Origin: Terrabacter sp. Ter38
Lineage (GTDB): Bacteria > Actinomycetota > Actinomycetes > Actinomycetales > Dermatophilaceae
Length of the DNA: 64,000 bases
NCBI RefSeq assembly: GCF_024519435.1
Contig: NZ_JALJRZ010000004.1
Span: 248,001 to 312,000, forward strand
Direction of reading: 5' to 3'
In this document: positions 47,896 to 60,300 of the stretch, one piece after another
How positions within the stretch are numbered: position 1 is the stretch's first letter
How the letters are laid out: each line of letters opens with the position of its first letter
Position numbers and translations under genes: made by a program
Notes under the pieces: model-generated
The model's database searches: none
Seen by the model: only the letters and a program-made list of their open reading frames with translations
What the model was told of the DNA's origin: nothing

Positions 47896-48016
47896 GCCTT
47901 CGCACGTTAGCCCGCCGGACGGCATACCTGAAGGGGCCACGCGCACTCCCTGGCCAGAGGTCGACGGATCCGGCCAAACCGGTCACGAAAGTCGCGGTTC
48001 GGGCGTATTTTTTGGG

Positions 48017-48922
48017 GTGAGCAGCCCACCTCGATGTGTGGGGGTTAGCGTGGCCGTCTCGGGGCTCAGACTCAATCTTCTCGGTGCTCCGACGCTCGTC
48101 TCGGGAGACGATCCCGTGGCGCTGTCGCCGGGTACCGCGGTGCTCGTCGCCTATCTCGCGCTCGCACCACGCGAGGGGCGCCAACGCGCGGTCGCGGCTG
48201 CCCAGCTCTTCGCCGACTGCCCCGAGGACTCGGCCCGCCGCCGGTTCAACACCGCCGTCTGGCGGCTCCAGTCCGAGGTGCGCGCGAGCACGGGCGTCGA
48301 GCTCGTCGGCCGCTCCGGTGGACGGTCGGTCGCGTTGAGCCGGGCCGTGCCGATGACCGTCGACGCGGTCCGCTTCGAGGACCTGCTGGCTCCCGTCCTG
48401 CGCCGCAACGTCGTCGACCTCACGGACGACGACGTCCACCGGCTCGAGGACGCCGTCGCGCTGCACCGCGGCCGGCTCGTCGAGGTCTGCGACGACGAGT
48501 GGGTGCTCGGGGCGCGACACCGCATCGAGACCCTCTACCTCACCGCCCTCGACTACCTCGTCCAGCACCACGGCAACCGCGGCGACGTCGCCGCCGTCGA
48601 CCGCTACGGGACGCTCGCGCTCGCCGTCGAGCCGCTGCGCGAGGACATCCACCGCCACCTCATGGGCGCCTACGCGGCGTCCGGCCGGCACGATCTCGTC
48701 GAGCGGCAGTTCGAGCAGTGCCGCCTGACGCTGCTCGCGGAGCTCGGCGCCGACCCGATGCCCGAGACGGTCGCGCTCTACGCCCGGATCACCCGGGGCG
48801 ACGCCGGCCAGGCCGCGTCGGTGGCCGCGCTCGTCGCCGAGCTCGAACGGGCCCGACGCGAGGTCGTGCGCCTCGCCGAGATCGTCGACCGCGCGCTCGA
48901 CCGCCTGCACCGCATGCCCTGA
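48017..48922 (+). CDS. SARP-type (BTAD) transcriptional regulator, probable eCIS activator
   Basis: The 301-residue protein has an OmpR-like winged helix (residues about 14-105: LRLNLLGAPTLVS, then FADCPEDSARRRFNTAVWRLQSEV) and a BTAD domain (about 120-255: VDLTDDDVHRLEDAVALHRGRL, ALAVEPLREDIHRHLMGAYAASGRHDLVERQFEQCR, LLAELGADPMPETVALYARI). A C-terminal helix of about 30 residues is likely a coiled coil. No ATPase module follows. GTG 48017 lies five bases after TATTTT, the most AT-rich stretch nearby; GTG 48038 and 48050 are alternatives. It heads the eCIS cluster. Confidence 0.85.
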   Translation: MSSPPRCVGVSVAVSGLRLNLLGAPTLVSGDDPVALSPGTAVLVAYLALAPREGRQRAVAAAQLFADCPEDSARRRFNTAVWRLQSEVRASTGVELVGRSGGRSVALSRAVPMTVDAVRFEDLLAPVLRRNVVDLTDDDVHRLEDAVALHRGRLVEVCDDEWVLGARHRIETLYLTALDYLVQHHGNRGDVAAVDRYGTLALAVEPLREDIHRHLMGAYAASGRHDLVERQFEQCRLTLLAELGADPMPETVALYARITRGDAGQAASVAALVAELERARREVVRLAEIVDRALDRLHRMP

Positions 48923-48967
48923 CGGGCAACGAGGGCGTATGCCGTGTCGCCGGGAGCGGCATGAGGT

Positions 48968-49044
48968 GGCCTCTCGACGTGACGAGGTGGGCCGGACGTG
49001 GCCTCTCGACGTGACGAGGTGGGCCGGACGTGGCCTCTCGACGG
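48968..49044 (+). repeat. 32-bp tandem direct repeat (2.4 copies)
   Basis: Copies start at 48968 and 49000, each 32 bp and beginning GGCCTCTCGACGTGACGAGG. A third partial copy covers 49032-49044. It lies between the SARP gene and the first eCIS gene. The word CGTGGCCTCTCGACG also occurs, reversed, in the LacI insertion at 18885-18899. Confidence 0.85.
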
Positions 49045-49055
49045 TGGGGTCGGTG

Positions 49056-49127
49056 GTGATCAGGCGGTGAGCAGGCGGTGAGCGGGTCGTGATCGGGGGG
49101 CGCGGGTCTCGTGAGCGGTCGGTGATC
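49056..49127 (+). promoter_or_regulatory. 11-bp phased GTGA(T/G)C array, probable SARP binding region
   Basis: GTGATC or GTGAGC occurs at 49056, 49067, 49078, 49089, 49111 and 49122, exactly 11 bp or 22 bp apart; only the 49100 position is missing. SARP regulators bind direct repeats spaced one helical turn (11 bp). The array sits between the SARP gene and the eCIS operon and ends 16 bp before the GTG at 49144. Confidence 0.75.
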
Positions 49128-49143
49128 GGTTGCCGGGACGCTC

Positions 49144-49380
49144 GTGGCTGAGCAGAAGGGTCACGGCCTGGTGATGCGAGCGTGGAGGCGGCGATTCCTC
49201 ATCGACGTGTGGGCCGAGCCCCGCGACGTCGACACGCTCCCGGCCGTCATCAGGGCCCGGGTGCGCGACATGGCCACGGACGAGGAGACCTACGTGGGAT
49301 CGTTCGCCGAGATCGAGCAGATCGTCGAGGCACGCCTCGACGACGACGGCGTGAGCCCGAGGCGTTGGGAGCGACCGTGA
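49144..49380 (+). CDS. small unknown protein, first gene of the eCIS operon
   Basis: The frame gives 78 residues from GTG 49144, or 68 from ATG 49174. The core is VMRAWRRRFLIDVWAEPRDVDTLP, then VRDMATDEETYVGSFAEIEQIVEARLDDDG, a small alpha/beta protein with a basic start and acidic end. I do not recognise a family. Its stop overlaps the next start (GTGA), which places it firmly in the eCIS operon. It could be a structural cap component or a regulator. Confidence 0.7.
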   Translation: MAEQKGHGLVMRAWRRRFLIDVWAEPRDVDTLPAVIRARVRDMATDEETYVGSFAEIEQIVEARLDDDGVSPRRWERP

Positions 49381-49919
49381 TCCGCGAGGTCAGCGAGGCG
49401 CTGCGAGACGTCATCCACCGGGCCACCCCCGACCTCGGGACGTGGATCGTGCTCCACTCGCTCTCGCAGGGCGACAAGACGGCCCTGCCGGACACCAAGG
49501 GCATCCTCGCGCTCATCGCGGTGGCCGAGCACCCGCACCTGCGCAACCGACCCCTCGTCGACGGGCTCACCGGCCTCGTCCGGGCGCCGCTGTCGCTCCA
49601 GCTGACCTACCTCGTCACCTACGTCGGCGACCACGACGAGGCGCAGACCCGGCTCGGCCGCGTCGTCCAGGCCTTCCACACGACGCCGATCGTGCGGCCG
49701 CCGGACCTGACGCCGCCGCTGTCGGACGAGGTCGAGAGCATCGCCGTCCGGCTGCTCGCGCCGAACGCCGACGAGCGCAACCAGGTCTGGGGGTCGCTCG
49801 GTCGGGCCGGGCGGCTCGCCCTCTTCTACGAGGTCGACGTCGCTCCGGTGCCGGTCCTCGAGCGGGACGGTCGCGGCCGGGTCCGCGAGCACCGCATCGA
49901 CTGGGTGGGGGCGACGTGA
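49377..49919 (+). CDS. DUF4255 (Pvc16/Afp16-like) tail terminator protein
   Basis: The 180-residue protein begins IREVSEALRDVIHRATP and continues with IAVAEHPHLRNRPLVDGLTGLVRAPLSLQLTYLVTYVGDHDEAQTRLGRVVQAFHTTPIV. That is the DUF4255 domain of eCIS tail-terminator/cap proteins (Pvc16, Afp16), related to phage gp3-type completion proteins. It caps the sheath-tube end and sets tube length with the tape measure. It is flanked by 4-nt overlaps on both sides. Confidence 0.9.
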   Translation: MIREVSEALRDVIHRATPDLGTWIVLHSLSQGDKTALPDTKGILALIAVAEHPHLRNRPLVDGLTGLVRAPLSLQLTYLVTYVGDHDEAQTRLGRVVQAFHTTPIVRPPDLTPPLSDEVESIAVRLLAPNADERNQVWGSLGRAGRLALFYEVDVAPVPVLERDGRGRVREHRIDWVGAT

Positions 49920-50527
49920 GCGTCCAGCCGGCGGCCCCGCACCTCGCAACGGTCACGACGACGCTGCGCCACACCGTGCGCCTCGTCCACGCCTCGACCG
50001 GGGCGCGGCTGCGCGGCCTCGACGCCCACCTCGAGCCGGCCCCGGCCGGCTGGACCCTCCGCGTGCTCCCGGACGTCCTCGTCGTCGCCGTCCGCGCCGA
50101 CGCCCCGGTGCCCGCCGTGCCGCCGAGGGTCGTGGTCACTCTGACGAACGGGGCGCTCGCCGACGTCCTCGTCGTACCGCCGCTCACCGGTCGACCCCCG
50201 CGGACCTTCGTCGTCGACCTCACCGCACCCGACGTCGAGGTCGTCGTCCACCCCGTCCCTTCGAGCCTGACCGTCGTCCTCACGACCCCGTCGACCGGAG
50301 CGCCGCGCACCGGTGTCGCCGTCACGGCGCGCGCGACTTCGGGTCCCGACCCGAAGCCGAGCGTCGCGCTCCCCGAAGTCGATCCGGGCACCTACCGGTC
50401 CGCGCCCGTCGAGTGGACCGCCGCCTTCACGCCGCTCGACCTGCTCGTCGGTGGCCAGCCGCTGCGCACGCTCTCCGTCGACGTCTCGAGGGCGACGACG
50501 ACCGTCCACCTCGTCGACACGACCTGA
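49916..50527 (+). CDS. beta-rich eCIS-associated protein of unknown function
   Basis: The 203-residue protein is almost all beta strand, with alternating Val/Thr/Ala and few helices, and looks like two sandwich domains (about 12-110 and 115-200). Segments include TLRHTVRLVHASTGARLRGLDAHLEPAPAGWTLRVLPD and LTVVLTTPSTGAPRTGVAVTARAT, resembling carboxypeptidase-regulatory-like or Ig-like folds. It lies between the cap and the sheath genes. It may decorate the particle surface or cap; no family is known to me. Confidence 0.7.
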   Translation: MSVQPAAPHLATVTTTLRHTVRLVHASTGARLRGLDAHLEPAPAGWTLRVLPDVLVVAVRADAPVPAVPPRVVVTLTNGALADVLVVPPLTGRPPRTFVVDLTAPDVEVVVHPVPSSLTVVLTTPSTGAPRTGVAVTARATSGPDPKPSVALPEVDPGTYRSAPVEWTAAFTPLDLLVGGQPLRTLSVDVSRATTTVHLVDTT

Positions 50528-50540
50528 CGACGGCGCCAAG

Positions 50541-50630
50541 GGCAACCACCGCACGACCCGCACCGCACCACACCACGACCCGCACCACGACCGAATCGCA
50601 CCCGAACCGCACCCCACCTGAACCGCACGA
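50541..50630 (+). promoter_or_regulatory. C-rich, G- and T-poor leader before the sheath gene
   Basis: By hand count these 90 bases are 47 C, 25 A, 16 G and only 2 T, with repeated CACGACC and GAACCGCAC words. Such unstructured C-rich RNA is what Rho loads on (rut), or what keeps an RBS open. It separates the upstream three-gene block from the sheath gene and could set their different expression. Confidence 0.45.
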
Positions 50631-50655
50631 CAGAGCACGAGCCGAGGAGGGCACC

Positions 50656-53271
50656 GTGACGACCTACCTTTCACCCGGCGTCTACGTCGAGGAGGTCCCC
50701 TCGGGGCCGCAACCGATCGCAGCCGCCCCCACGAGCGTCGTGGCCGTGCTCGGCACGACGCGCCGCGGGCCCGTCAAGGAGCCGACGCGTGTCACGGGAT
50801 GGGCCGACTTCGTGCGGACCTTCGGGGCCGCCACGTCGCGGGGCTTCACGGGGGAGTCGGTCTTCGGCTACTTCGAGAACGGCGGCCCCGCCGCCTGGAT
50901 CGTCCGGGTCGACCCGTCGACCGGCGCCTCGTGGACCGTCTTCGACGTCGCGGGCACGGAGAGCTTCGACATCGAGGCGAGCTCGCCCGGCACGTGGGGC
51001 AACGACCTGTCGGTCGCCGTCTCCGCCGACGAGTCGGCCGCGTCGGGCTCGTTCTACCGCGCGACGACGACGTCGGCGACGGGCGCCATCGCGAGCGGGG
51101 GGAACGGCACGATCGCTGTCGCCTCGACCGCGGGGCTCAAGCCCGGAGACACCGTCGCCCTGGTGGCTGCGCCGACGAGCGGGTCGGTCGCGGCACCGCC
51201 CACCGCGCTCGTGACGGCCCTGACCACGACGTCGATCACGGTCGGCAGCGCGAGCGCCGCCGTCACCCTCCCCGCTGGCTCGGTCGTCGCGAGCGCGGCC
51301 GCCGCGGCGGCCACCGCCGTCTTCCTCCCGTCCGGCAAGGGCTTCAAGAAGGGTGACGTCGTCGTCGCCGTCGCCCCCAACGGCACGCGCTCGAGCGCGG
51401 TCGTCACCGACGTCACGACCGCCGGCAGCGGGGTCACCCTGACCCTCGACGCGTCCCTCGGCGCCGTCCCCGGCGCGGCCTTCGTCCAGCGGCGCACCGA
51501 CTACCGGGCCACCGCGACGATCGCCGGCGCCCCGGCCGGGTCACCGCCGTCGCTCAACGTCTCGGCCTCGGCCCTCGCGTTCGACCGTCCGCTCACCGCG
51601 CCCATCGCGTCCGAGCTGACGGCGAGCGGCGTCGAGCACGCGGCAGCGCGCCTCACGACCAGTGACGGCCGCACCGCCTCCTGGCAGACGAACCGCTTCG
51701 TCGTCGTCGGCGCCACCGCCGCCCCGAGCGGCCCGGTCACCGTCAACGCGGCGGTCACGGCGGTCCTGCTCGCGGACTCGGGCCTCGGCATCACCGGGCT
51801 GTCCGCGGCCGACGTCGGCAACGCGTACGGCTTCCTCCCGGCGGGTGCCAAGGTGACCTTCACCGGCGCGGGGTCGACCCCCGCCGTCGTCGCGACCCGG
51901 ACGGCCGGCGGGTTCACGCTGGCTCCCGCGCCGGTCGCGACCGACACGTACACGGACGCGACGTTCACCCTCCAGGCCGACGCCGACGACGGCATCGCCG
52001 TCCGATGCGCCGTGGCGCCCCGGGTCGGCGACGTGCTCGGTCTCGGGACGGCCTACGCGCCGATCACGGGCGTCGACGCAGCGGGTGGCGACACGTACGT
52101 GCTCCGGTTCGCGGCCAGCACGGCCGTCTCCAACGCCGCCCAGGCGCGTTTCCCGCTGTATGCCGTCGAGTCGGCGTCCGTCGTGGCCGCGCGGTTCACG
52201 CTGGCGGTCTCCGTCGGCGGCGCCCCCGCCGAGACGTTCGGCGGCCTGTCCCTGAGCCCCGACCACCCGGCGTACTTCGCCAAGGACGACGTCGTCAACG
52301 GCGCCTCGTCGCTCGTCACCGTGACCGCGCGGGCCAGTGGTGCCCCGGCGGTGTCGCTCGCGGCGGCGCCGTTCTACACGGCCGTCGACCGGATCGGCGC
52401 CGACAAGGCCCCGACGAACGACGACTTCCGCGCCGGCCTGACCCGGCTCGAGGAGGTCGCCGAGCCGGCCATGGTCATCTGCCCGGACGCGCTGACGCTC
52501 GGCGACCCGCTCCTGCAGGCCGACCTCGTCGGCCAGGTCGTGACGCACTGCGAGAACTTCCGGCGCTTCGCCATCGTCGACGCGCCCGACCTCGACGACA
52601 CGGAGCTGCTGTCGTGGCGCAACACGACGCTCTCGAGCACGTATGCCGCCCTCTACGCGCCGCACCTGCAGATCGTCACGATCGACCCCGACTCGATCGA
52701 CCGCTTCACGACCGTGCCGCCGTCGGGCTTCGTCGCCGGGGTCTTCGCCCGCACCGACCGGCTGCGCGGCGTGCACAAGGCGCCCGGGAACGAGACGGTC
52801 ACCGGCATCGTCGGGCTCTCGCAGGCCTACACCCAGCGCCGGCAGGACCTGCTCAACCCCGGCGGCGTCAACCTCATCCGAGCCTTCCCGGGCCGCGGCA
52901 CGAGGCTCTGGGGTGCCCGCAACGCGACCGACGACACGACGTGGCGCTACGTCAACGTCCGTCGGCTCTTCAACATGGTCGAGACGTCGGTCGACCGCGC
53001 CACCCAGTGGGTCGTCTTCGAGCCCAACACCGCCCAGACGTGGATCCGCGTCAAGGTCTCGGTGGAGAACTTTCTCGACCAGCAGTGGCGTGCAGGGGCG
53101 CTCGCGGGCACCAAGCCGGAGCAGGCCTACCGCGTGCGCGTCGGGCTCGGCGAGACGATGACGGAGACGGACATCGACCTCGGGCTCATCATCACCGAGG
53201 TCGCGATCGCGCCGGCCAAGCCCGCGGAGTTCGTCGTCTTCCGCTTCAGCCACAAGCGGCTGTCCGAGTGA
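50656..53271 (+). CDS. contractile sheath protein with large internal insertion
   Basis: The 871-residue protein begins like tail sheath proteins (TYLSPGVYVEEVPSGPQPIAAAPTSVVAVLG, then FGYFENGGPAAWIVRVD). It ends like them too (VPPSGFVAGVFARTDRLRGVHKAPGN, NVRRLFNMVETSVDRATQWVVFEPN, IDLGLIITEVAIAPAKPAEFVVFRF). About 450 residues between 125 and 580 are extra, Thr/Ala/Val-rich beta domains with repeated GDTVALVA/GDVVVAVA units. Typical eCIS sheaths are 350-500 residues, and AFP uses three genes; only one is here. GAGGAGG precedes the GTG. Confidence 0.9.
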   Translation: MTTYLSPGVYVEEVPSGPQPIAAAPTSVVAVLGTTRRGPVKEPTRVTGWADFVRTFGAATSRGFTGESVFGYFENGGPAAWIVRVDPSTGASWTVFDVAGTESFDIEASSPGTWGNDLSVAVSADESAASGSFYRATTTSATGAIASGGNGTIAVASTAGLKPGDTVALVAAPTSGSVAAPPTALVTALTTTSITVGSASAAVTLPAGSVVASAAAAAATAVFLPSGKGFKKGDVVVAVAPNGTRSSAVVTDVTTAGSGVTLTLDASLGAVPGAAFVQRRTDYRATATIAGAPAGSPPSLNVSASALAFDRPLTAPIASELTASGVEHAAARLTTSDGRTASWQTNRFVVVGATAAPSGPVTVNAAVTAVLLADSGLGITGLSAADVGNAYGFLPAGAKVTFTGAGSTPAVVATRTAGGFTLAPAPVATDTYTDATFTLQADADDGIAVRCAVAPRVGDVLGLGTAYAPITGVDAAGGDTYVLRFAASTAVSNAAQARFPLYAVESASVVAARFTLAVSVGGAPAETFGGLSLSPDHPAYFAKDDVVNGASSLVTVTARASGAPAVSLAAAPFYTAVDRIGADKAPTNDDFRAGLTRLEEVAEPAMVICPDALTLGDPLLQADLVGQVVTHCENFRRFAIVDAPDLDDTELLSWRNTTLSSTYAALYAPHLQIVTIDPDSIDRFTTVPPSGFVAGVFARTDRLRGVHKAPGNETVTGIVGLSQAYTQRRQDLLNPGGVNLIRAFPGRGTRLWGARNATDDTTWRYVNVRRLFNMVETSVDRATQWVVFEPNTAQTWIRVKVSVENFLDQQWRAGALAGTKPEQAYRVRVGLGETMTETDIDLGLIITEVAIAPAKPAEFVVFRFSHKRLSE

Positions 53272-53332
53272 CCCGCCGTGACCAGCCGACGCACACGCCG
53301 CCTGAATCCTCTTGTGAGCCAAGGAGCCTGAC

Positions 53333-53770
53333 ATGTATCCCATGACCACCCTGCACTTCACCGTCAGCTGGGGCGACCGCCAGCAGACCTCGAGCTTCTC
53401 GGAGGTGAGCGGGCTGACGATGGAGGCCGAGGTCGTCGAGTACCGCGGCGGCGCGGACCCGCAGTTCTCGACGCGCAAGCAGCCCGGGCTGCGCAAGTTC
53501 TCCAACGTCACCCTCAAGCGGGGCATCGCCCCGACGGAGGCCGGCAACGGGCTCTTCGAGTGGTACAACTCCATCACCATCGGCGCGGTCGAGCGGCGCG
53601 ACGTCACGGTGAGCCTCCTCAACGAGGAGCGCGAGCCGGTCATGACGTGGAAGATCAAGGAGGCCTGGCCGGTCAAGATCGAGGGCCCCGGCCTCAAGTC
53701 GACCGGCACCGACGTCGCCATCGAGTCGGTCGAGTTCGCCTGCGAGGGCATCGAGATCGAGGCGAAGTAG
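53333..53770 (+). CDS. inner tube protein (gp19/Hcp-like, Afp1 type)
   Basis: The 145-residue protein matches the eCIS tube family: HFTVSWGDRQQTSSFSEVSGLTMEAEVVEYRGGADPQFSTRKQPGLRKFSNVTLKRG, then WYNSITIGAVERRDVTVSLLNEE and IKEAWPVKIEGPGLKSTGTDVAIESVEFACEG. It would stack as hexamers inside the sheath. AAGGAG precedes ATG 53333. Confidence 0.92.
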   Translation: MYPMTTLHFTVSWGDRQQTSSFSEVSGLTMEAEVVEYRGGADPQFSTRKQPGLRKFSNVTLKRGIAPTEAGNGLFEWYNSITIGAVERRDVTVSLLNEEREPVMTWKIKEAWPVKIEGPGLKSTGTDVAIESVEFACEGIEIEAK

Positions 53771-53773
53771 CCG

Positions 53774-54235
53774 ATGCTCCCGCTCGCCTCACCCGCGCTC
53801 GTGCCGTTCACGACGGCGCACTTCGTGCTGGCCATCGACGGGCTCACGTCCGTCAGTTTCAGCAAGTGCACCGGGCTCGCGGGTGAGGTCGCCGTCGAGG
53901 AGTACCAGGAGGGCGGCGAGAACCGCTTCGCCCACCGCTTCCCGACGCGGGCGTCCTTCCCCAACCTCGTCCTCAACCAGGGCGCCGGCCCCCTCCAGGA
54001 GCTGTGGGACTGGTTCTACGAGTTCCACGTCACGGGTGTCGTGACGCCGCGCGACGGGACCGTCGTGCTCATGAGCACCGTCGAGGGCGCGCTCGCGCCG
54101 GTCCGCGTGTGGGCCTTCACGCGCGGCTGGCCGGTCAAGCTCACCGGCCCCGACCTCGATGCCCAGAGCTCGGCTGTCGCCGTCGAGGCCGTCGAGATCG
54201 CCCACCACGGGCTCGTCCTCAAGAAGGTGGTCTGA
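53774..54235 (+). CDS. second tube/tube-initiator protein (Afp5 type)
   Basis: The 153-residue protein is related to the first tube protein but distinct: HFVLAIDGLTSVSFSKCTGLAGEVAVEEYQEGGENRFAHRFPTRASFPNLVLNQGAGPLQELWDWFYEF, then FTRGWPVKLTGPDLDAQSSAVAVEAVEIAHHGL. In eCIS such paralogues form the first ring on the baseplate hub. The start is 3 nt after the tube stop. Confidence 0.9.
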   Translation: MLPLASPALVPFTTAHFVLAIDGLTSVSFSKCTGLAGEVAVEEYQEGGENRFAHRFPTRASFPNLVLNQGAGPLQELWDWFYEFHVTGVVTPRDGTVVLMSTVEGALAPVRVWAFTRGWPVKLTGPDLDAQSSAVAVEAVEIAHHGLVLKKVV

Positions 54236-54403
54236 GTGCCCGTCGTCATCAGCGAGATCGTCACCGAGGTCGTCGTCGCACCGAGGACGGATGCCCCCGG
54301 GCCGGCGCCCGACGCGCCGCTCGGTGACGCCGCCATCGAAGCCATCGTGCGGCGGTCGGTGGAGCGGGTCCTCGAGGTGCTCCGGCGGGAGTGGGACCGG
54401 TGA
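54236..54403 (+). CDS. small DUF5908-like eCIS protein
   Basis: This 55-residue frame (GTG 54236) begins right after the preceding stop and ends in a GTGA overlap with the next gene. It starts MPVVISEIVTEVVVAP and ends with a basic helix VRRSVERVLEVLRREWDR. Short proteins starting MPV-I-EL/I with a polar middle (DUF5908) occupy this position in many eCIS clusters. Their role is not known; baseplate assembly is a guess. Confidence 0.75.
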   Translation: MPVVISEIVTEVVVAPRTDAPGPAPDAPLGDAAIEAIVRRSVERVLEVLRREWDR

Positions 54404-55074
54404 ACCTCACGGCCACCCAGCTGACCAAGCTGACCATCGACGCGTACGCCGACCTGAAGTTCGAGCAGCCCGCCGGGCTGCGCTGGCAGGCCCTGCTCAA
54501 CCCGACCGAGCTGTCCTTCTCGCGCAAGAACCTCTACCAGGCGACGCAGTCGGCCGGCACGTCTGCGCCGCAGCAGTCCTTCAGCGGTGGCGAGCCCGAC
54601 CAGGTGCAGATCGACCTGTTGCTCGACGGCACCGGGGTCGTCGGCGAGCCCGGTGGCATCGGTGAGCTGCTCGACGCCCTCCTCGCGCTGACGAAGTTCC
54701 AGGGCGACACGCACCAGCCCTACTACGTGCACTGCTACTGGGGGCGGTTCAGCTTCCGCGGCATCCTGACCCAGGCCGACGTGACGTACAAGCTCTTCAA
54801 CCGGGCGGGGGAGCCGCTGCGGGCGACGGTCAAGCTGTCACTCAAGGAGGCGCTGTCACCGCAGGAGGTTGCCGCCGAGGACCGGCCGGCCTCGCCCGAC
54901 CTCTACCAGACGTGGCTCGTCACGGACGGCGACGCCCTCGACGCCATCGCCGCCCGGGTCTACGGTGACCCCGCCTACTGGCGCCCGCTGGCGGCGGCCA
55001 ACCGGCTGACCAACCCGCGCGGGCTCACCACCGGGCAGCTGCTCCTGCTCCCGCCGCTGGGGACGACCCGATGA
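54400..55074 (+). CDS. LysM-containing baseplate hub protein (Afp7/gp53-like)
   Basis: The 224-residue protein has an N-terminal CIS-tube-type domain (LTIDAYADLKFEQPAGLRWQALLNPTELSFSRKNLYQATQSAG, then GGEPDQVQIDLLLDGTGVVG and YYVHCYWGRFSFRGILTQADVTYKLFNRAGEPLRATVKLSLKEAL). A C-terminal LysM (LVTDGDALDAIAARVYGDPAYWRPLAAANRLTNP) follows. It links the tube to the spike. GTG 54400 is chosen for its GTGA overlap; GTG 54391 is possible. Confidence 0.9.
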   Translation: MNLTATQLTKLTIDAYADLKFEQPAGLRWQALLNPTELSFSRKNLYQATQSAGTSAPQQSFSGGEPDQVQIDLLLDGTGVVGEPGGIGELLDALLALTKFQGDTHQPYYVHCYWGRFSFRGILTQADVTYKLFNRAGEPLRATVKLSLKEALSPQEVAAEDRPASPDLYQTWLVTDGDALDAIAARVYGDPAYWRPLAAANRLTNPRGLTTGQLLLLPPLGTTR

Positions 55075-56822
55075 CCGCGCCGACGACCCAGCGCGACCGA
55101 CCGGCCTTCGAGGTGCGGGTCGGCGGGACCGCGCTCGAGCCGATCGTCGCCGCCGACGTCGTCGAGCTCGAGGTGCACGAGGAGGTCGGTCGCCACGGGC
55201 GGCTCACGCTCCTCGTCCAGAACTGGGACGCCGACCAGCGCGTCGTGCGGCACAGCGACGACGGGCCGTTCACTCCCGGAGCGGGCATCGCGGTCTCCGT
55301 CGGCTACCACTCCGACCTCACTGAGGTCTTCGACGGCGTCATCGCCTCGCTGACGACGCACTTCCCGAGCGGCAGCCCTCCCGTGCTCCGGGTCGAGGGC
55401 CGGTCGCGGTCGGTCCTCATGGACCACCCGCCGCGGTCGCGCCAGCTCGCCGATGTCACCGACGCCGACATCGCCTCCGCCGTCGCTGCCGACTACTCGC
55501 TCGAGACCGACGCGGCCGACGGCGTCACCCACCCCTTCTGGGCCAGCGACCGGGTCAGCGACTGGGATGCCCTGACGACCCGGGCGTGCGAGCTCGGCTG
55601 GGTCCTGTTCGTCCGCGGCACGAAGCTCGTGCTCCGGCCGCCGTCGGCCGCGCAGAACCCGCTCGAGCTCGACTGGACCCGGTCGCTCGTCGAGCTGCAC
55701 CTCACCGAGGACCTGACCCGGGCCATCGACACCGCGGTCGGGGTCGGCTGGGACGTCGACGCCGCCGAGGCGACCGAGAGCGAGCAGAGCGCGAGCGCGG
55801 CCGACCTCGACGTCGGTGACCGGCAGAGTCACTCGGCGGCCGTCGGCGACGCCGGGTGGCCGCTGCGAGCCGAGCGTGTCGAGTCGGACGCGGTCGGTGC
55901 CGCCGACGAGGCCGACGCGAGAGCCGTTGCCGCCCAAAGGCGCTCCGCCCTCGGGCACGTCCACGGCACCGGCGTCGTGCAGGGCGAGCCGGGGCTGCGC
56001 TGCGACGGCTGGCTCTCCATCGCCGGTGTCGGACGGCGGATGTCCGGACCGCACTACGTCACCGCTGCACGACACCGGCTCTCGGCCCGGGGCTACGTCA
56101 CCGAGTTCCAGGTGGGATCGCCCCCGCGGCTCGTGCCGCGGGCAGCGGCCGACGACGGGTCGGGGCGCCGCGGCGACCGCGGACCGGCGCTCGGGATCGG
56201 CCTCGTCGAGGCGCTCGACGACCCGGCGTCGCTCAACCGGGTCAAGGTGCGCCTGCCCTGGCGCAGCGACGGCGGTGACGGCGTCTGGGCTCGCCTCTCC
56301 AACGTCGACGCGGGCGACGGCTACGGGGCCGTCATCGCCCCTGCCGTCGGGCAAGAGGTGCTCGTCGGCTTCGTCGGCGGCGACCCGGCACACCCCGTCG
56401 TCCTGGGCTCGCTCTACAACGGGAGCCAGCAGCCCCCCTTCACCGTCGACCCGGACACGAACGCCGTGCGAGCGCTCGTCTCGCCCGACCAGCACACCCT
56501 CCGCCTCGAGGACGGCACCGACAGCGCCGTGACTCTCAAGACCGGCAAGGGCCACTCGATCCTGCTGTCCGACAAGGACTCCGAGGTCGTCATCACCCAC
56601 AAGGACAGCGGCAACGCGATCCGCCTGTCCGCCGACGGCATCGAGCTGACGGCGGCGCAGGGCGACATCACCCTCTCGTCGTCGTCCGGGACCATCTCGC
56701 TCGACTCGCTCAAGCTCGCCGCCAAGGCGTCCGGCCCGTCGAGCATCGAGAGCTCGGCGACCCTCGACGTCAAGGCCTCGGGATCCCTGGGCCTCAAGGG
56801 GTCCCTCGTGACCATCAACTGA
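55071..56822 (+). CDS. VgrG-like spike protein (Afp8 type)
   Basis: The 583-residue protein has a gp27-like hub (FEVRVGGTALEPIVAADVVELEVHEEVGRHGRLTLLVQNWD, VSVGYHSDLTEVFDGVIASLTTHFP), then an OB-fold gp5-like domain (VKVRLPWRSDGGDGVWARLSNVDAGDGYGAVIAPAVGQEVLVGFVGGDPAHPVVLGSLYNG). A C-terminal triple-stranded beta-helix follows, with short repeats (HSILLSDKDSEVVITHKDSGNAIRLSADGIELTAAQGDITL). There is no extra enzymatic domain. ATGA overlap with the previous gene. Confidence 0.93.
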   Translation: MTAPTTQRDRPAFEVRVGGTALEPIVAADVVELEVHEEVGRHGRLTLLVQNWDADQRVVRHSDDGPFTPGAGIAVSVGYHSDLTEVFDGVIASLTTHFPSGSPPVLRVEGRSRSVLMDHPPRSRQLADVTDADIASAVAADYSLETDAADGVTHPFWASDRVSDWDALTTRACELGWVLFVRGTKLVLRPPSAAQNPLELDWTRSLVELHLTEDLTRAIDTAVGVGWDVDAAEATESEQSASAADLDVGDRQSHSAAVGDAGWPLRAERVESDAVGAADEADARAVAAQRRSALGHVHGTGVVQGEPGLRCDGWLSIAGVGRRMSGPHYVTAARHRLSARGYVTEFQVGSPPRLVPRAAADDGSGRRGDRGPALGIGLVEALDDPASLNRVKVRLPWRSDGGDGVWARLSNVDAGDGYGAVIAPAVGQEVLVGFVGGDPAHPVVLGSLYNGSQQPPFTVDPDTNAVRALVSPDQHTLRLEDGTDSAVTLKTGKGHSILLSDKDSEVVITHKDSGNAIRLSADGIELTAAQGDITLSSSSGTISLDSLKLAAKASGPSSIESSATLDVKASGSLGLKGSLVTIN

Positions 56823-56879
56823 CCGGACGCCGCACGTCCGGACCAGTCCACACCACCGATCATCCAACGAGGAGGAGAC

Positions 56880-57155
56880 ATGCCGGGGGCAGCACGCGTC
56901 GGTGACACCACCGCGCACGGGGGCACGGTCGTCGGGCCGGGCGTCGCCACCGTGCTCATCGCCGGGATGCCGGCCGCCGTCCTCGGGGACATGCACGCCT
57001 GCGTCATCCCGCCGCCCTCGCACATCCCGGCCAGCCCGTTCGTCGCGGGCTCCGCGACCGTCCTCGTCCAGGGCCGACCAGCCCTGCGCGCCGGTGATGC
57101 CTGCGGCTGCGGCGCCTCGGTCGTCGTGGGCAGCCCGACGGTGGTGATCGGATGA
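56880..57155 (+). CDS. PAAR spike-tip protein
   Basis: The 91-residue PAAR-like protein has repeated turns GDTTAHGGTVVGPGVATVLIAGMPAAVLGDMHACVIPP, then GSATVLVQGRPALRAGDACGCGASVVVGSPTVVIG. His and Cys residues (His13, His39, Cys41, Cys75, Cys77) could bind the tip metal ion. It sharpens the VgrG spike. A strong RBS (GAGGAGGAG) suggests independent initiation after the only real gap in this part of the operon. Confidence 0.92.
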   Translation: MPGAARVGDTTAHGGTVVGPGVATVLIAGMPAAVLGDMHACVIPPPSHIPASPFVAGSATVLVQGRPALRAGDACGCGASVVVGSPTVVIG

Positions 57156-57586
57156 GCACCAGCGACTACCCGCAGGTCGGACGCGGCTGGGCGTTCCCGC
57201 CGCGCTGGGAGCGCGCGGGCGGCGACGGCACCGGCACCACCGGGTCCGTCGAGCTCGTGACGAACGACGGCGCCGAGCACGTCGGGGAGGCGCTCGTGCT
57301 GCTCCTGCGCACGATGATCGGCAGCCGCGTCATGCGACCGGACCTCGGGGCCGGCGTCGACCGCTACGTCTTCGAGCCGCGCACGTCGGAGGCCTGCCAC
57401 CGGCTCGCCGACGACGTCCGCCGGGCCCTCGTGCTCGGCGAGCCGCGGGTCATCGTCGACGCCGTCGACGCGGTGCCGGCCGGTGAGGCCGACGACCGGG
57501 TCGACGTCACCATCGAGTTCCGCATCGACCGGCACCGGCGGCCGACGAGTCTCGTCGTGCCCTTCTACCTGGCCGGTGCGTCATGA
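57152..57586 (+). CDS. gp25-like baseplate wedge protein
   Basis: The 144-residue protein has the gp25 fold: GWAFPPRWERAGGDGTGTTGSVELVTNDGAEHVGEALVLLLRTMIGSRVMRPDLGAGVDRYVFEPRTSEACHRLADDVRRALVLGEPRVIVDAVDAV. The usual EPR motif is present as EPR in GEPRVIV. It joins the baseplate to the sheath. It overlaps both neighbours by 4 nt. Confidence 0.92.
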   Translation: MSTSDYPQVGRGWAFPPRWERAGGDGTGTTGSVELVTNDGAEHVGEALVLLLRTMIGSRVMRPDLGAGVDRYVFEPRTSEACHRLADDVRRALVLGEPRVIVDAVDAVPAGEADDRVDVTIEFRIDRHRRPTSLVVPFYLAGAS

Positions 57587-60300
57587 CCGCGGGCGGACGC
57601 ACCCCCGGGCAGGTCGCCGCCGCGATGGCCGCCGCCGCGCGTCTGGCGCCCTATGACACCGCGGGGACCTGGGCCGACGTGCTCTTCGCGACCGACCCCG
57701 ACGGCGTGACGGCGCCTTCGCCGGCAGGTGCCCCCGACCGCGAGCTGCTCGCGGCGGTGGCCGCCGAGTACGCCGCACTCGACGCGCACCTCGCGACGTT
57801 GCCGGAGCGGACCCGCCGCACGTGGCTCGAGGAGATCCTCGGCGTCGGCCGCCTCCCCGCGCTGCCGGACCGCATCGTCGCGCACGCGACCGTCGACCCC
57901 AAGGCGGCACCCGCGGTGCTGCCGCCGGGCACGCCCTTGCGCGGTGGCAAGGACGCCTTCGGCAACGAGCGCCGCTACGTCACCCTCGACGCCCTGACGG
58001 CGCACGGTGCGGCCCTCACGGGGGTGCGGTCCTTCGCCCCCGGCGAACCCGTCCGCGCCCACGGGGTTGCGGCCGTGGCACCGGACTTCCCGCTGCGACC
58101 CTCGGCCGGACCGGAGGCCGCGCACTCCCTGCGGATCCACTCACCGGCGCTGGCCTTCGACGCCGGTGACCTCACCGCCGAGGTGTCCTTCACGGGTGCG
58201 GCCGGCACCGAGGGCCTGTCCGCGCTCGTCTGGCGCTGGTCGCACGCCGACGGCACGACGAGCGGGACGACCGGCGGCGCCGTTTCCGGTGGCACGGTCA
58301 CGGTCACGCTGACCGGTGGCTGCGGCGCGCGCGACGGCGAGGTGCCTTGGCTCGAGGGCGTCGTCGCGACGAGCACGGCGGTGCCTGTGGGCTTCTCGTT
58401 CACCGGGGTCACGGTGCGCGTGACGGACCGAACGGCATACGTCCCCGAGGCGGCCTTCTACAACGACGGCGCGGTCGACGTCACGAAGGAGTTCCAGCCG
58501 TTCGGCGCCGTCGCGAAGCGCGGTGACGCCTTCTACGTGCGCTCGGACGAGGCGTTCGGCAAGGCACTGGCGACCGTCGAGGTCGCGGTGCAGGTCATGC
58601 AGGAGGGCGGTGCGCCGCTCTCGTCATCGGCCGGCGGCACGGGCATCCCCGTCTGGCTGGCCGACACGCTCAAGACGCAGCTGCTCAGCATCAAGAACAC
58701 ACTCGGCTCGCAGTACGCGTCGGTCGAGACGCAGTGGACCTCGATCTACGGCGCGGTCTCGACGACGACGACGCCGTCGGTCGTGTGGCAGCGCCGCGAG
58801 GACGGCGCGTGGAAGCAGGTCGGGACGGCGTCGTCGAGCTTCGGCACGCTGTCGGCGCCGGTGACCGGGTCGGCCGTGGCGTCCGAGACCTTCGCGGTCG
58901 CGGGACAGGCCGGCCACTACCTCCGGGCCTTCCTCGCGCAGGGCGACTTCGGCTGGACCGACTACCAGGCCAAGGTCGCCGACTTCGCGACGCGGGCCGT
59001 CGCAGGCACGGGTCCCAAGCCGACCATGCCGCCCGTACCGGTCCCGCCGATCGCCTCGGCCGTGACGGTGCGGTACACCACGACTCCGGTCGAGGCCTCG
59101 CTCGTCGATTCGAGCAGCGGCTGGCGGCGACAGCGGCGCGTCGGCGGAGCGGCCGGACGCTTCACGCCGTTCCGGCTCGTCGTGTCCGACCTCGGCGCGA
59201 CGGCCATGGTCGCCATCGGGCTCGAGCTGCCCGACGCCGGGCTCGGGTCGAGCGTCTCGCTCTACCTCGACGTCGACTCCGCGTCGCCGTGCGGCAGCTC
59301 CGACTCGGTCGTGGCCTCCTGGCAGTTCTGGGACGGCACGACGTGGGCGCCGCTCGCGGTCGCCGACGGCTCACACCAGCTCCGCGAGGCGGGTCTGCTC
59401 CGCTTCGTCGCCCCGCGCGCGTGGGCCGTCGGCTGTGACGACCTGTCGGCCGACACCGGTCGCTGGGTGCGGATCGAGACCGACCAGCCGGACCGTCTGG
59501 GCGTCCTGCTCGCCGTGGTCGTCGACGCCGTCGTGGCCGAGTTCGTCTCCCGGGCGGCGGATCCCGCCCTCGACCCCAGCTCGGCGCAGGCCCTCCCGGT
59601 GGGCACGATCAAGGGCACCCTCGCACCGGTTCCCGGCGTCAAGAAGGTCACCAACCTCGCGTCCGTGCGTGGCCGTGCGCCCGAGACGGACGCCGAGTAC
59701 CTCGCGCGCGGCTCGGCGCGGGTGCGCCACCGCGACCGGGCGCTGACCCCTTGGGACCTCGAGCAGCACGTCGCGCTCGCGCTCCCCGAGGTGGCCGCCG
59801 TGCTGTGCCTGCCACACACCGGCGGCGACGGGCTGCGCGCTCCCGGCCACGTCGGACTCGTCGTCGTGCCGGACCGACCGCTCGACGTCGCCCCCCGGCC
59901 GTCCGTCAGCCTCGCCGGCCGTGTCGTCGGCCTCGTGCAGCCACGCGCGCCGATCGGTGCCACCCTCCACGTGCTCTGCCCGGACTACCGTCCCGTCACC
60001 GTCGTCGCCTCGATCCGGCTGCGCCCGGGCGTCGCGGCCCTCACCGGCACCCAGGCGCTCACCGCCGCCCTCGAGCGGGTGCTGCACCCGACGGGCACCG
60101 TGCCCGTCCGCTGGGGCCGCGACCTCTACGCCTCGACCCTCATCGCCGTCCTCGAGCGCCAGCCCGACGTCGACGTCGTCCTCGACTTCGCCCTGCACGA
60201 CGGGTCGGGCGGGCCCGTCGAGGTCGTCGCCGTCGACCCGTGCCGCGGGCTCTACTGCTCGTCCGGCGACCACCACCTCTTGTGCGAGGAGCAGCTGTGA
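57583..60300 (+). CDS. baseplate J-like protein (Afp11 type)
   Basis: The 905-residue protein has an N-terminal wedge part (RTWLEEILGVGRLPALPDRIVAHATVDPKAAPAVLPPGTPLRGGKDAFGNERRYVTLDALT). Long beta domains (about 150-600) follow, then the gp6/J core (TNLASVRGRAPETDAEYLARGSARVRHRDRALTPWDLEQHVALALPEVAAVLCLPHTGGD). The C-terminus ends LYCSSGDHHLLCEEQL with several Cys. It forms the ring that triggers sheath contraction. Confidence 0.9.
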   Translation: MTAGGRTPGQVAAAMAAAARLAPYDTAGTWADVLFATDPDGVTAPSPAGAPDRELLAAVAAEYAALDAHLATLPERTRRTWLEEILGVGRLPALPDRIVAHATVDPKAAPAVLPPGTPLRGGKDAFGNERRYVTLDALTAHGAALTGVRSFAPGEPVRAHGVAAVAPDFPLRPSAGPEAAHSLRIHSPALAFDAGDLTAEVSFTGAAGTEGLSALVWRWSHADGTTSGTTGGAVSGGTVTVTLTGGCGARDGEVPWLEGVVATSTAVPVGFSFTGVTVRVTDRTAYVPEAAFYNDGAVDVTKEFQPFGAVAKRGDAFYVRSDEAFGKALATVEVAVQVMQEGGAPLSSSAGGTGIPVWLADTLKTQLLSIKNTLGSQYASVETQWTSIYGAVSTTTTPSVVWQRREDGAWKQVGTASSSFGTLSAPVTGSAVASETFAVAGQAGHYLRAFLAQGDFGWTDYQAKVADFATRAVAGTGPKPTMPPVPVPPIASAVTVRYTTTPVEASLVDSSSGWRRQRRVGGAAGRFTPFRLVVSDLGATAMVAIGLELPDAGLGSSVSLYLDVDSASPCGSSDSVVASWQFWDGTTWAPLAVADGSHQLREAGLLRFVAPRAWAVGCDDLSADTGRWVRIETDQPDRLGVLLAVVVDAVVAEFVSRAADPALDPSSAQALPVGTIKGTLAPVPGVKKVTNLASVRGRAPETDAEYLARGSARVRHRDRALTPWDLEQHVALALPEVAAVLCLPHTGGDGLRAPGHVGLVVVPDRPLDVAPRPSVSLAGRVVGLVQPRAPIGATLHVLCPDYRPVTVVASIRLRPGVAALTGTQALTAALERVLHPTGTVPVRWGRDLYASTLIAVLERQPDVDVVLDFALHDGSGGPVEVVAVDPCRGLYCSSGDHHLLCEEQL

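What the first reader, a model, noticed from the sequence alone, without database searches (positions are those of the whole stretch)
49056..49127. Six GTGA(T/G)C words on an exact 11-bp lattice between the SARP gene and the eCIS operon
Positions 49056, 49067, 49078, 49089, 49111 and 49122 all carry GTGATC or GTGAGC; spacing is 11 bp with one slot (49100) empty. Chance agreement of six hexamers on one lattice is very unlikely. SARP proteins (ActII-ORF4, DnrI) bind heptamer direct repeats spaced 11 or 22 bp. The array is longer than the usual two or three repeats, which suggests cooperative loading and a sharp switch.
Basis: partly seen in the sequence, partly recalled or inferred. Interest (0 to 1): 0.8.

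Follow-up and report, generated by a model that had tools for sequence, protein, structure and literature searches.

The report
SARP-type promoter driving injection machine operon
A row of short DNA words repeated once per helix turn sits just before a phage-tail-like injection machine operon and looks like the landing strip for the activator encoded next door, an activator family best known for switching on antibiotic genes.

Summary
GTGA(T/G)C stands at 49056, 49067, 49078, 49089, 49111 and 49122 on an 11-bp lattice, with slot 49100 empty. It is the only 6-of-7 hexamer lattice in the 64-kb window for periods 8-16, and 0 of 3000 shuffles match it. Best reading: a SARP operator-promoter for the eCIS (contractile injection) operon, bound by the adjacent small SARP (48017-48922). 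In 11 of 11 loci with an orthologous SARP (30% hit L013 left out) GTGA words precede the operon's first gene, and a -10-like nAnnnT starts exactly 8 bp after the last heptamer, the published SARP spacing; background is about 2%. Among 186 family genomes, the same 7 carry both SARP and the Pvc16-type eCIS gene. The conserved core is usually pair-skip-pair; the window's two most upstream repeats are lineage-specific. Binding and activation are not shown, and 'sharp switch' is untested. BTAD regulators beside eCIS are already published; my searches found no described operator. Verdict: a new member of a known kind, with a long, skip-containing array on a non-antibiotic target.

The parts
48017..48922 (+). 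small SARP gene (N-terminal DNA-binding region + BTAD, 301 codons), presumed activator
   Evidence: Pfam BTAD 1.2e-20; NCBIfam AfsR model matched over residues 13-268, 8.9e-7, far below that model's cut-off; profile hit to AfsR 8hvr over the BTAD part only
49056..49077 (+). two extra upstream repeats (49056, 49067), lineage-specific
   Evidence: slot of 49067 GTGAGC only in window and L004; slot of 49056 GTGATC only in window
49078..49099 (+). upstream conserved repeat pair (49078, 49089)
49100..49110 (+). skipped lattice slot
   Evidence: no GTGA in 9 of 10 aligned loci; filled in L012
49111..49132 (+). promoter-proximal repeat pair (49111, 49122), inferred activating SARP box covering the -35 position
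   Evidence: geometry read from sequence
49137..49142 (+). -10-like GACGCT, 8 bp after the last heptamer
   Evidence: nAnnnT at this offset in 10 of 10 aligned loci and in L061
49154..49176 (+). AGAAGGG ribosome-binding-like sequence (49154-49160) and start codon GTG 49171 or ATG 49174
   Evidence: read from sequence; inference
49171..49380 (+). small first ORF of the eCIS operon (69 aa, no family found)
49377..49919 (+). Pvc16_N-domain gene, second in operon
   Evidence: Pfam PF14065 1.8e-22
50413..60300 (+). stretch with eCIS structural genes: sheath, two tube proteins, VgrG-related/baseplate V, Baseplate_J
   Evidence: five ORFs of this stretch scanned

Best explanation
The array is the operator of a SARP-dependent promoter for the eCIS operon. 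SARP monomers made by the gene next door bind the repeats side by side, one per helical turn on one DNA face. The pair at 49111/49122 covers the place of a missing -35 element and, by analogy with AfsR, holds sigma region 4 so that RNA polymerase can use the weak -10 (GACGCT, 49137-49142) and start near 49150. The second conserved pair (49078/49089), one skipped turn upstream, and the lineage-specific extras are inferred to add binding sites that raise occupancy. Shown here: the lattice, its conservation, the 8-bp spacing to a -10-like hexamer, and SARP-operon-array co-occurrence. Inferred: binding by this SARP, direction of regulation, start site, cooperativity.
For: (1) Lattice beyond chance. 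(2) GTGA words in register before the first operon gene in 11 of 11 loci with the orthologous SARP (window, L004-L009, L011, L012, L014, L061), each with a Pvc16-type gene downstream. With the register chosen by program, nAnnnT starts 8 bp after the last heptamer in 11 of 11 (six, five). On 10 loci aligned by a last repeat that I picked, offset 8 has 10 of 10 and no other offset from -40 to 44 more than 5; background 1.8-2.2%. (3) Null: in up to 20,000 random 260-bp stretches of the window none had 3 or more GTGA in register, nor 2 with nAnnnT. (4) Published rule: repeats 11 or 22 bp apart, 3' repeat 8 bp from the -10 (PMC10936776 passages; PMC4393881 passages). (5) Same 7 of 186 family genomes have SARP and Pvc16-type gene. 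Pair + 8 + nAnnnT occurs in 5 of 9 genus genomes, the same 5 that have the SARP. (6) Hexamer columns invariant in 22 of 24 against 14 of 35 other columns in five Terrabacter loci, P = 9e-5. (7) In L008/L009 further sequence with a gene lies between SARP and array; the array stays with the operon. (8) T66 and R70, matched by ungapped spacing to AfsR's base-contacting T88 and R92, are invariant in the eight aligned SARPs. (9) No sigma-70 consensus promoter in 48850-49420.
Against: No binding or expression data. The N-terminal wHTH is not confirmed: model pLDDT below 50 for residues 1-102, the Pfam hit is BTAD only. L061 has one 12-bp step, so only 2 of its 4 GTGA are on the lattice; L011 has a fourth word off by one base; L008, L009 and L014 have ACGA or GAGA instead of GTGA in slot -1. 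L012 and L061 lack the skip. The heptamer differs from published ones such as CGGCAAG. The six lineages share ancestry, so conservation partly reflects descent. G094 has one further site fitting the pattern (C13, GTGACC type, not followed up) and G130 one control match.
Confidence: 0.88

Rival explanations
1. The array is the site of another tandem-binding OmpR-type regulator such as PhoP (PHO box: 11-nt direct-repeat units, GTTCACC in S. coelicolor), read on the minus strand (GMTCAC), or of a global AfsR-like SARP, rather than of the local SARP.
For: PHO boxes have the same 11-nt unit build (PMC4415409, passages), and AfsR and PhoP share sites (PMC10972967). The reverse complement GMTCAC differs from GTTCAC by one base.
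Against: The + strand reading gives the 8-bp spacing to a -10-like hexamer for the + operon in 11 of 11 loci. The pair + 8 + nAnnnT pattern is absent from the 4 of 9 genus genomes without SARP and Pvc16-type hits, one of them only 74% complete. The words drift towards GTGACRC in loci whose SARP has S for N in the recognition helix, although the tree needs only one change and single words break the rule.
Confidence: 0.07
2. A decaying tandem duplication with no regulatory role.
For: The first two units are alike in 10 of 11 bases, and a separate 32-bp tandem repeat lies directly upstream.
Against: Hexamers are conserved while spacers diverge; register and -10 spacing are kept across six lineages.
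Confidence: 0.02
3. The SARP represses the operon, or the array serves an RNA-level leader function.
For: Occupancy over the -35 region could in principle exclude polymerase (inference).
Against: Described SARPs activate from this geometry (PMC10936776). The stretch has no unusual RNA folding, z = -0.33, and lies upstream of the inferred start.
Confidence: 0.03

Closest known systems
afs box of the afsS promoter (AfsR, Streptomyces coelicolor)
   Same: 11-bp direct repeats over the -35 position, weak -10 (CACTGT there, GACGCT here), 8-bp rule; repeat CGTT(T/C)ATCGNN resembles gGTGATCG
   Different: two repeats rather than 4-6; [quoted passage not shown] target afsS, not an eCIS
Small pathway-specific SARPs and their heptamer operators (ActII-ORF4, DnrI, OtcR)
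   Same: cluster-situated SARP, repeats at 11 or 22 bp
   Different: two or three repeats in the cases listed by PMC10972967 and PMC4393881; antibiotic clusters; other repeat words
PimR operator (SARP-LAL)
   Same: heptamers with 4-bp spacers in a triplet plus a separate doublet, so a multi-repeat operator
   Different: does not overlap the -35; large SARP-LAL
eCIS-linked regulators (GerE/LuxR and BTAD) of Geller et al. 2021
   Same: BTAD gene next to an eCIS operon and proposed to regulate it
   Different: no operator described in the passages read

Membership tests
SARP operator/promoter | direct repeats spaced 11 or 22 bp | tested here: met
   window exact; 10 of 11 loci hold 3 or more GTGA on the lattice, L061 has 2 plus a 12-bp step
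SARP operator/promoter | 3' repeat 8 bp from the -10 element | tested here: met
   nAnnnT at +8 in 11 of 11; that it is a working -10 is not tested
SARP operator/promoter | repeats overlap the -35 position, no good -35 | tested here: met
   geometry read from sequence; no sigma-70 promoter match
SARP operator/promoter | bound by a SARP, which activates transcription | not testable with these tools
   needs EMSA, footprint, reporter
SARP protein family | BTAD domain | tested here: met
   PF03704 1.2e-20
SARP protein family | N-terminal OmpR-type wHTH | tested here: inconclusive
   AfsR model aligned over 13-268, but no Pfam wHTH hit and low-confidence model there
eCIS operon | sheath, tube, baseplate genes | tested here: met
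PHO box | 11-nt units with a GTTCACC-like core | tested here: inconclusive
   unit length fits; the core is GMTCAC, one base off, on the strand opposite to the operon (read); no PhoP test was made

The most novel reading that the evidence does not exclude
A mobile eCIS module carries its own SARP and a matched multi-turn operator of pair-skip-pair build. Two SARP dimers one empty turn apart, with variable extra repeats (up to 6 in all), would form a higher-order activation complex not described for two- or three-repeat SARP promoters, and protein and operator would change together (N to S in the recognition helix with GTGAKCG to GTGACRC-type words).
Probability: 0.35. Interest if true: 0.7.

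Novelty: new member of a known kind. Interest (0 to 1): 0.55.

Why it matters
What turns on phage-tail-like injection systems in Gram-positive bacteria is, as far as I know, largely open. This names a candidate regulator, its exact operator and a predicted start site, so one EMSA and one reporter can settle it. It would extend SARP-type activation from antibiotic clusters to an injection machine, and gives a simple sequence rule (11-bp GTGA lattice + 8 bp + nAnnnT) for finding more.

Tried and rejected
PHO-box, duplication and RNA-leader readings: see rivals. A lattice before the SARP gene itself (autoregulation): in the 420 bp upstream of the matched start, at most 1 GTGA per register in each of the 11 loci. 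Plasmid relatives (two rhizobial records, 29-34% identity): not pursued; of L064 only an ORF list was seen (BTAD protein about 700 aa, neighbours not scanned), and L065 was not examined because the script stopped. Viral-contig scan with the Pvc16 alignment: no relative. L013 (30% SARP hit) and L018 (divergent Pvc16-like gene in G284, no SARP hit): no array. Fold of the SARP: DNA-binding half too uncertain to use.

Own errors: the second eCIS gene was given out of frame (49379 for 49377). Corrected.

Full report
Setting. The window lies in a 4.83-Mb actinobacterial genome (G000:C43). A same-genus genome carries a contig of the same length (640,991 bases) as Terrabacter sp. Root181 NZ_LMHU01000005.1, so the genus is inferred to be Terrabacter. 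The order of genes is: SARP (48017-48922, BTAD 1.2e-20), 32-bp tandem repeats (48958-49053), the array, a small ORF (49171-49380), a Pvc16_N gene (49377-49919), then sheath, two tube genes, VgrG-related/baseplate V and Baseplate_J genes: an eCIS operon.

Observation. The six words are exactly where stated. No other place in the 64-kb window reaches 6 of 7 on any lattice of period 8-16, and none of 3000 dinucleotide shuffles of the intergenic region does. Three in a row is unique in the genome.

Relatives. Searches with the SARP found it in 7 of 186 family genomes, 5 of 9 genus genomes (a subset), 4 of 396 sampled order genomes including the own genome and the 30% hit L013, and 2 of 394 sampled class genomes including the own. 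Profile searches of samples of 130 and 129 genomes from the families of L014 and L011 found only those two. One viral-contig record (L061) was added. That gives 11 loci: window, L004-L007 (genus), L008-L009 (another genus of the family), L011, L012, L014 (other families) and L061. All 11 have a Pvc16-type gene downstream: window, L004-L009; L011, L012; L014, L061.

Operator anatomy. Read backwards from the last repeat, slots 0, -1, -3 and -4 carry GTGA-type words, and slot -2 lacks GTGA in 9 of the 10 aligned loci. L012 fills slots 0 to -3 without a skip and has none in -4. L008, L009 and L014 have ACGA or GAGA in slot -1. L011 keeps slots 0, -1 and -3, with a fourth word off by one base. L061 has four words spaced 11, 12 and 11 bp. 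GTGA occupies 36 of 50 cells of slots 0 to -4 in register and 0 of 50 at every other shift from -5 to 5. Among five Terrabacter loci, 22 of 24 hexamer columns are invariant against 14 of 35 spacer, empty-slot and gap columns; over ten loci 10 of 24 against 0 of 35. The tables are anchored on the last repeat, so slot 0 is aligned by construction. The extra repeats at 49056 and 49067 are not conserved (window only; window and L004).

Spacing to the -10. The published SARP rule is that the 3' repeat lies 8 bp from the -10 element (PMC10936776 passages; PMC4393881 passages). With the register chosen by program, nAnnnT starts 8 bp after the last heptamer in 11 of 11 loci (for six, for five): GACGCT (4), GACCCT, CAGCGT (2), AAACGT, CATCCT, GAGGGT, CAGCCT. 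No other offset from -40 to 44 exceeds 5 of 10, and the background is about 2%. L061 was fetched after the rule was set and fits. In up to 20,000 random stretches (those overlapping the intergenic region were skipped and not counted), none had 3 or more GTGA in register, nor 2 with nAnnnT.

Who binds. The SARP and the Pvc16-type gene occur in the same 7 of 186 family genomes. In the order sample G442 and G449 have both; G284 has a divergent Pvc16-type gene without a SARP hit and without an array, and G208 only the 30% SARP hit, without an array. In the genus the pair-plus-8-plus-nAnnnT pattern occurs in 5 of 9 genomes, the same 5 that have the SARP, with one extra unexamined site in G094. In L008/L009 further sequence lies between SARP and array (an AbiEi_4 gene in L008; L009 not scanned), and the array remains with the operon. 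AfsR contacts the repeat through T88 and R92 (PMC10936776 section 7); matching by ungapped spacing, these correspond to T66 and R70, invariant in the eight SARPs of A1. The residue before that threonine is N in the loci with mostly GTGAKC words and S in those with mostly GTGAC words; single words break this (GTGACC in L011, GTGACG in L061, GTGAGA in L012, GTGATG in L014). The SARP tree needs one change only, with modest support (75/78), so this is consistent with, not proof of, joint change. The tree also puts L008/L009 with L014 rather than with the same-family Terrabacter, so the module has probably moved between lineages.

Mechanism. By analogy with the AfsR initiation complex (side-by-side dimer on two repeats over the -35, engaging sigma region 4; PMC10936776 abstract, passages and section 7), the pair 49111/49122 is the inferred activating box. 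The upstream pair and extras are inferred auxiliary sites. Whether they add cooperativity is open; in PimR an added heptamer did not substantially improve output (PMC5930380 passages).

What is known. A model with eCIS operons regulated by adjacent GerE or BTAD genes is in Geller et al. 2021 (PMC8213781 passages). A SARP-family gene linked to CIS genes by predicted co-occurrence in S. clavuligerus is in PMC13102240 (passages). S. coelicolor eCIS promoters and bldA dependence are in PMC10020575 (passages). Searches showed no paper describing a SARP operator before an eCIS operon; this holds only for the open library searched and the rows listed (15 of 25, 10 of 37; all rows in 23, 67 and 76; none found in 79), most seen as listings only. 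The review of SARPs lists two or three heptamers (PMC10972967 section 8).

Noticed in passing
window 48958-49053: Three copies of a 32-bp tandem repeat (third copy 66% alike) between the SARP stop and the array; it is not on the 11-bp lattice. No unusual RNA folding of 48923-49060 (z 0.19).
   Followed up: partly
L008 and L009, between SARP and array: Extra sequence with an AbiEi_4-type gene (scanned in L008 only) and several GAACTTCTGCGT/ACGCAGAAGTTCGGAT-like words, possibly an inserted element.
   Followed up: partly
window 47960-48019: A stretch GCGGTTCGGGCGTATTTT just before the SARP start is conserved in Terrabacter relatives (altered in L007), perhaps the promoter of the activator itself.
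   Followed up: no
L012 (minus strand), SARP stop: The SARP stop codon TGA lies inside the first repeat word GTGACG, so coding sequence and operator overlap.
   Followed up: no
G094:C13:204222-204253 (L060): One further site fitting the pair + 8 bp + nAnnnT pattern (GTGACC type) in a Terrabacter genome; a possible second target or chance.
   Followed up: no
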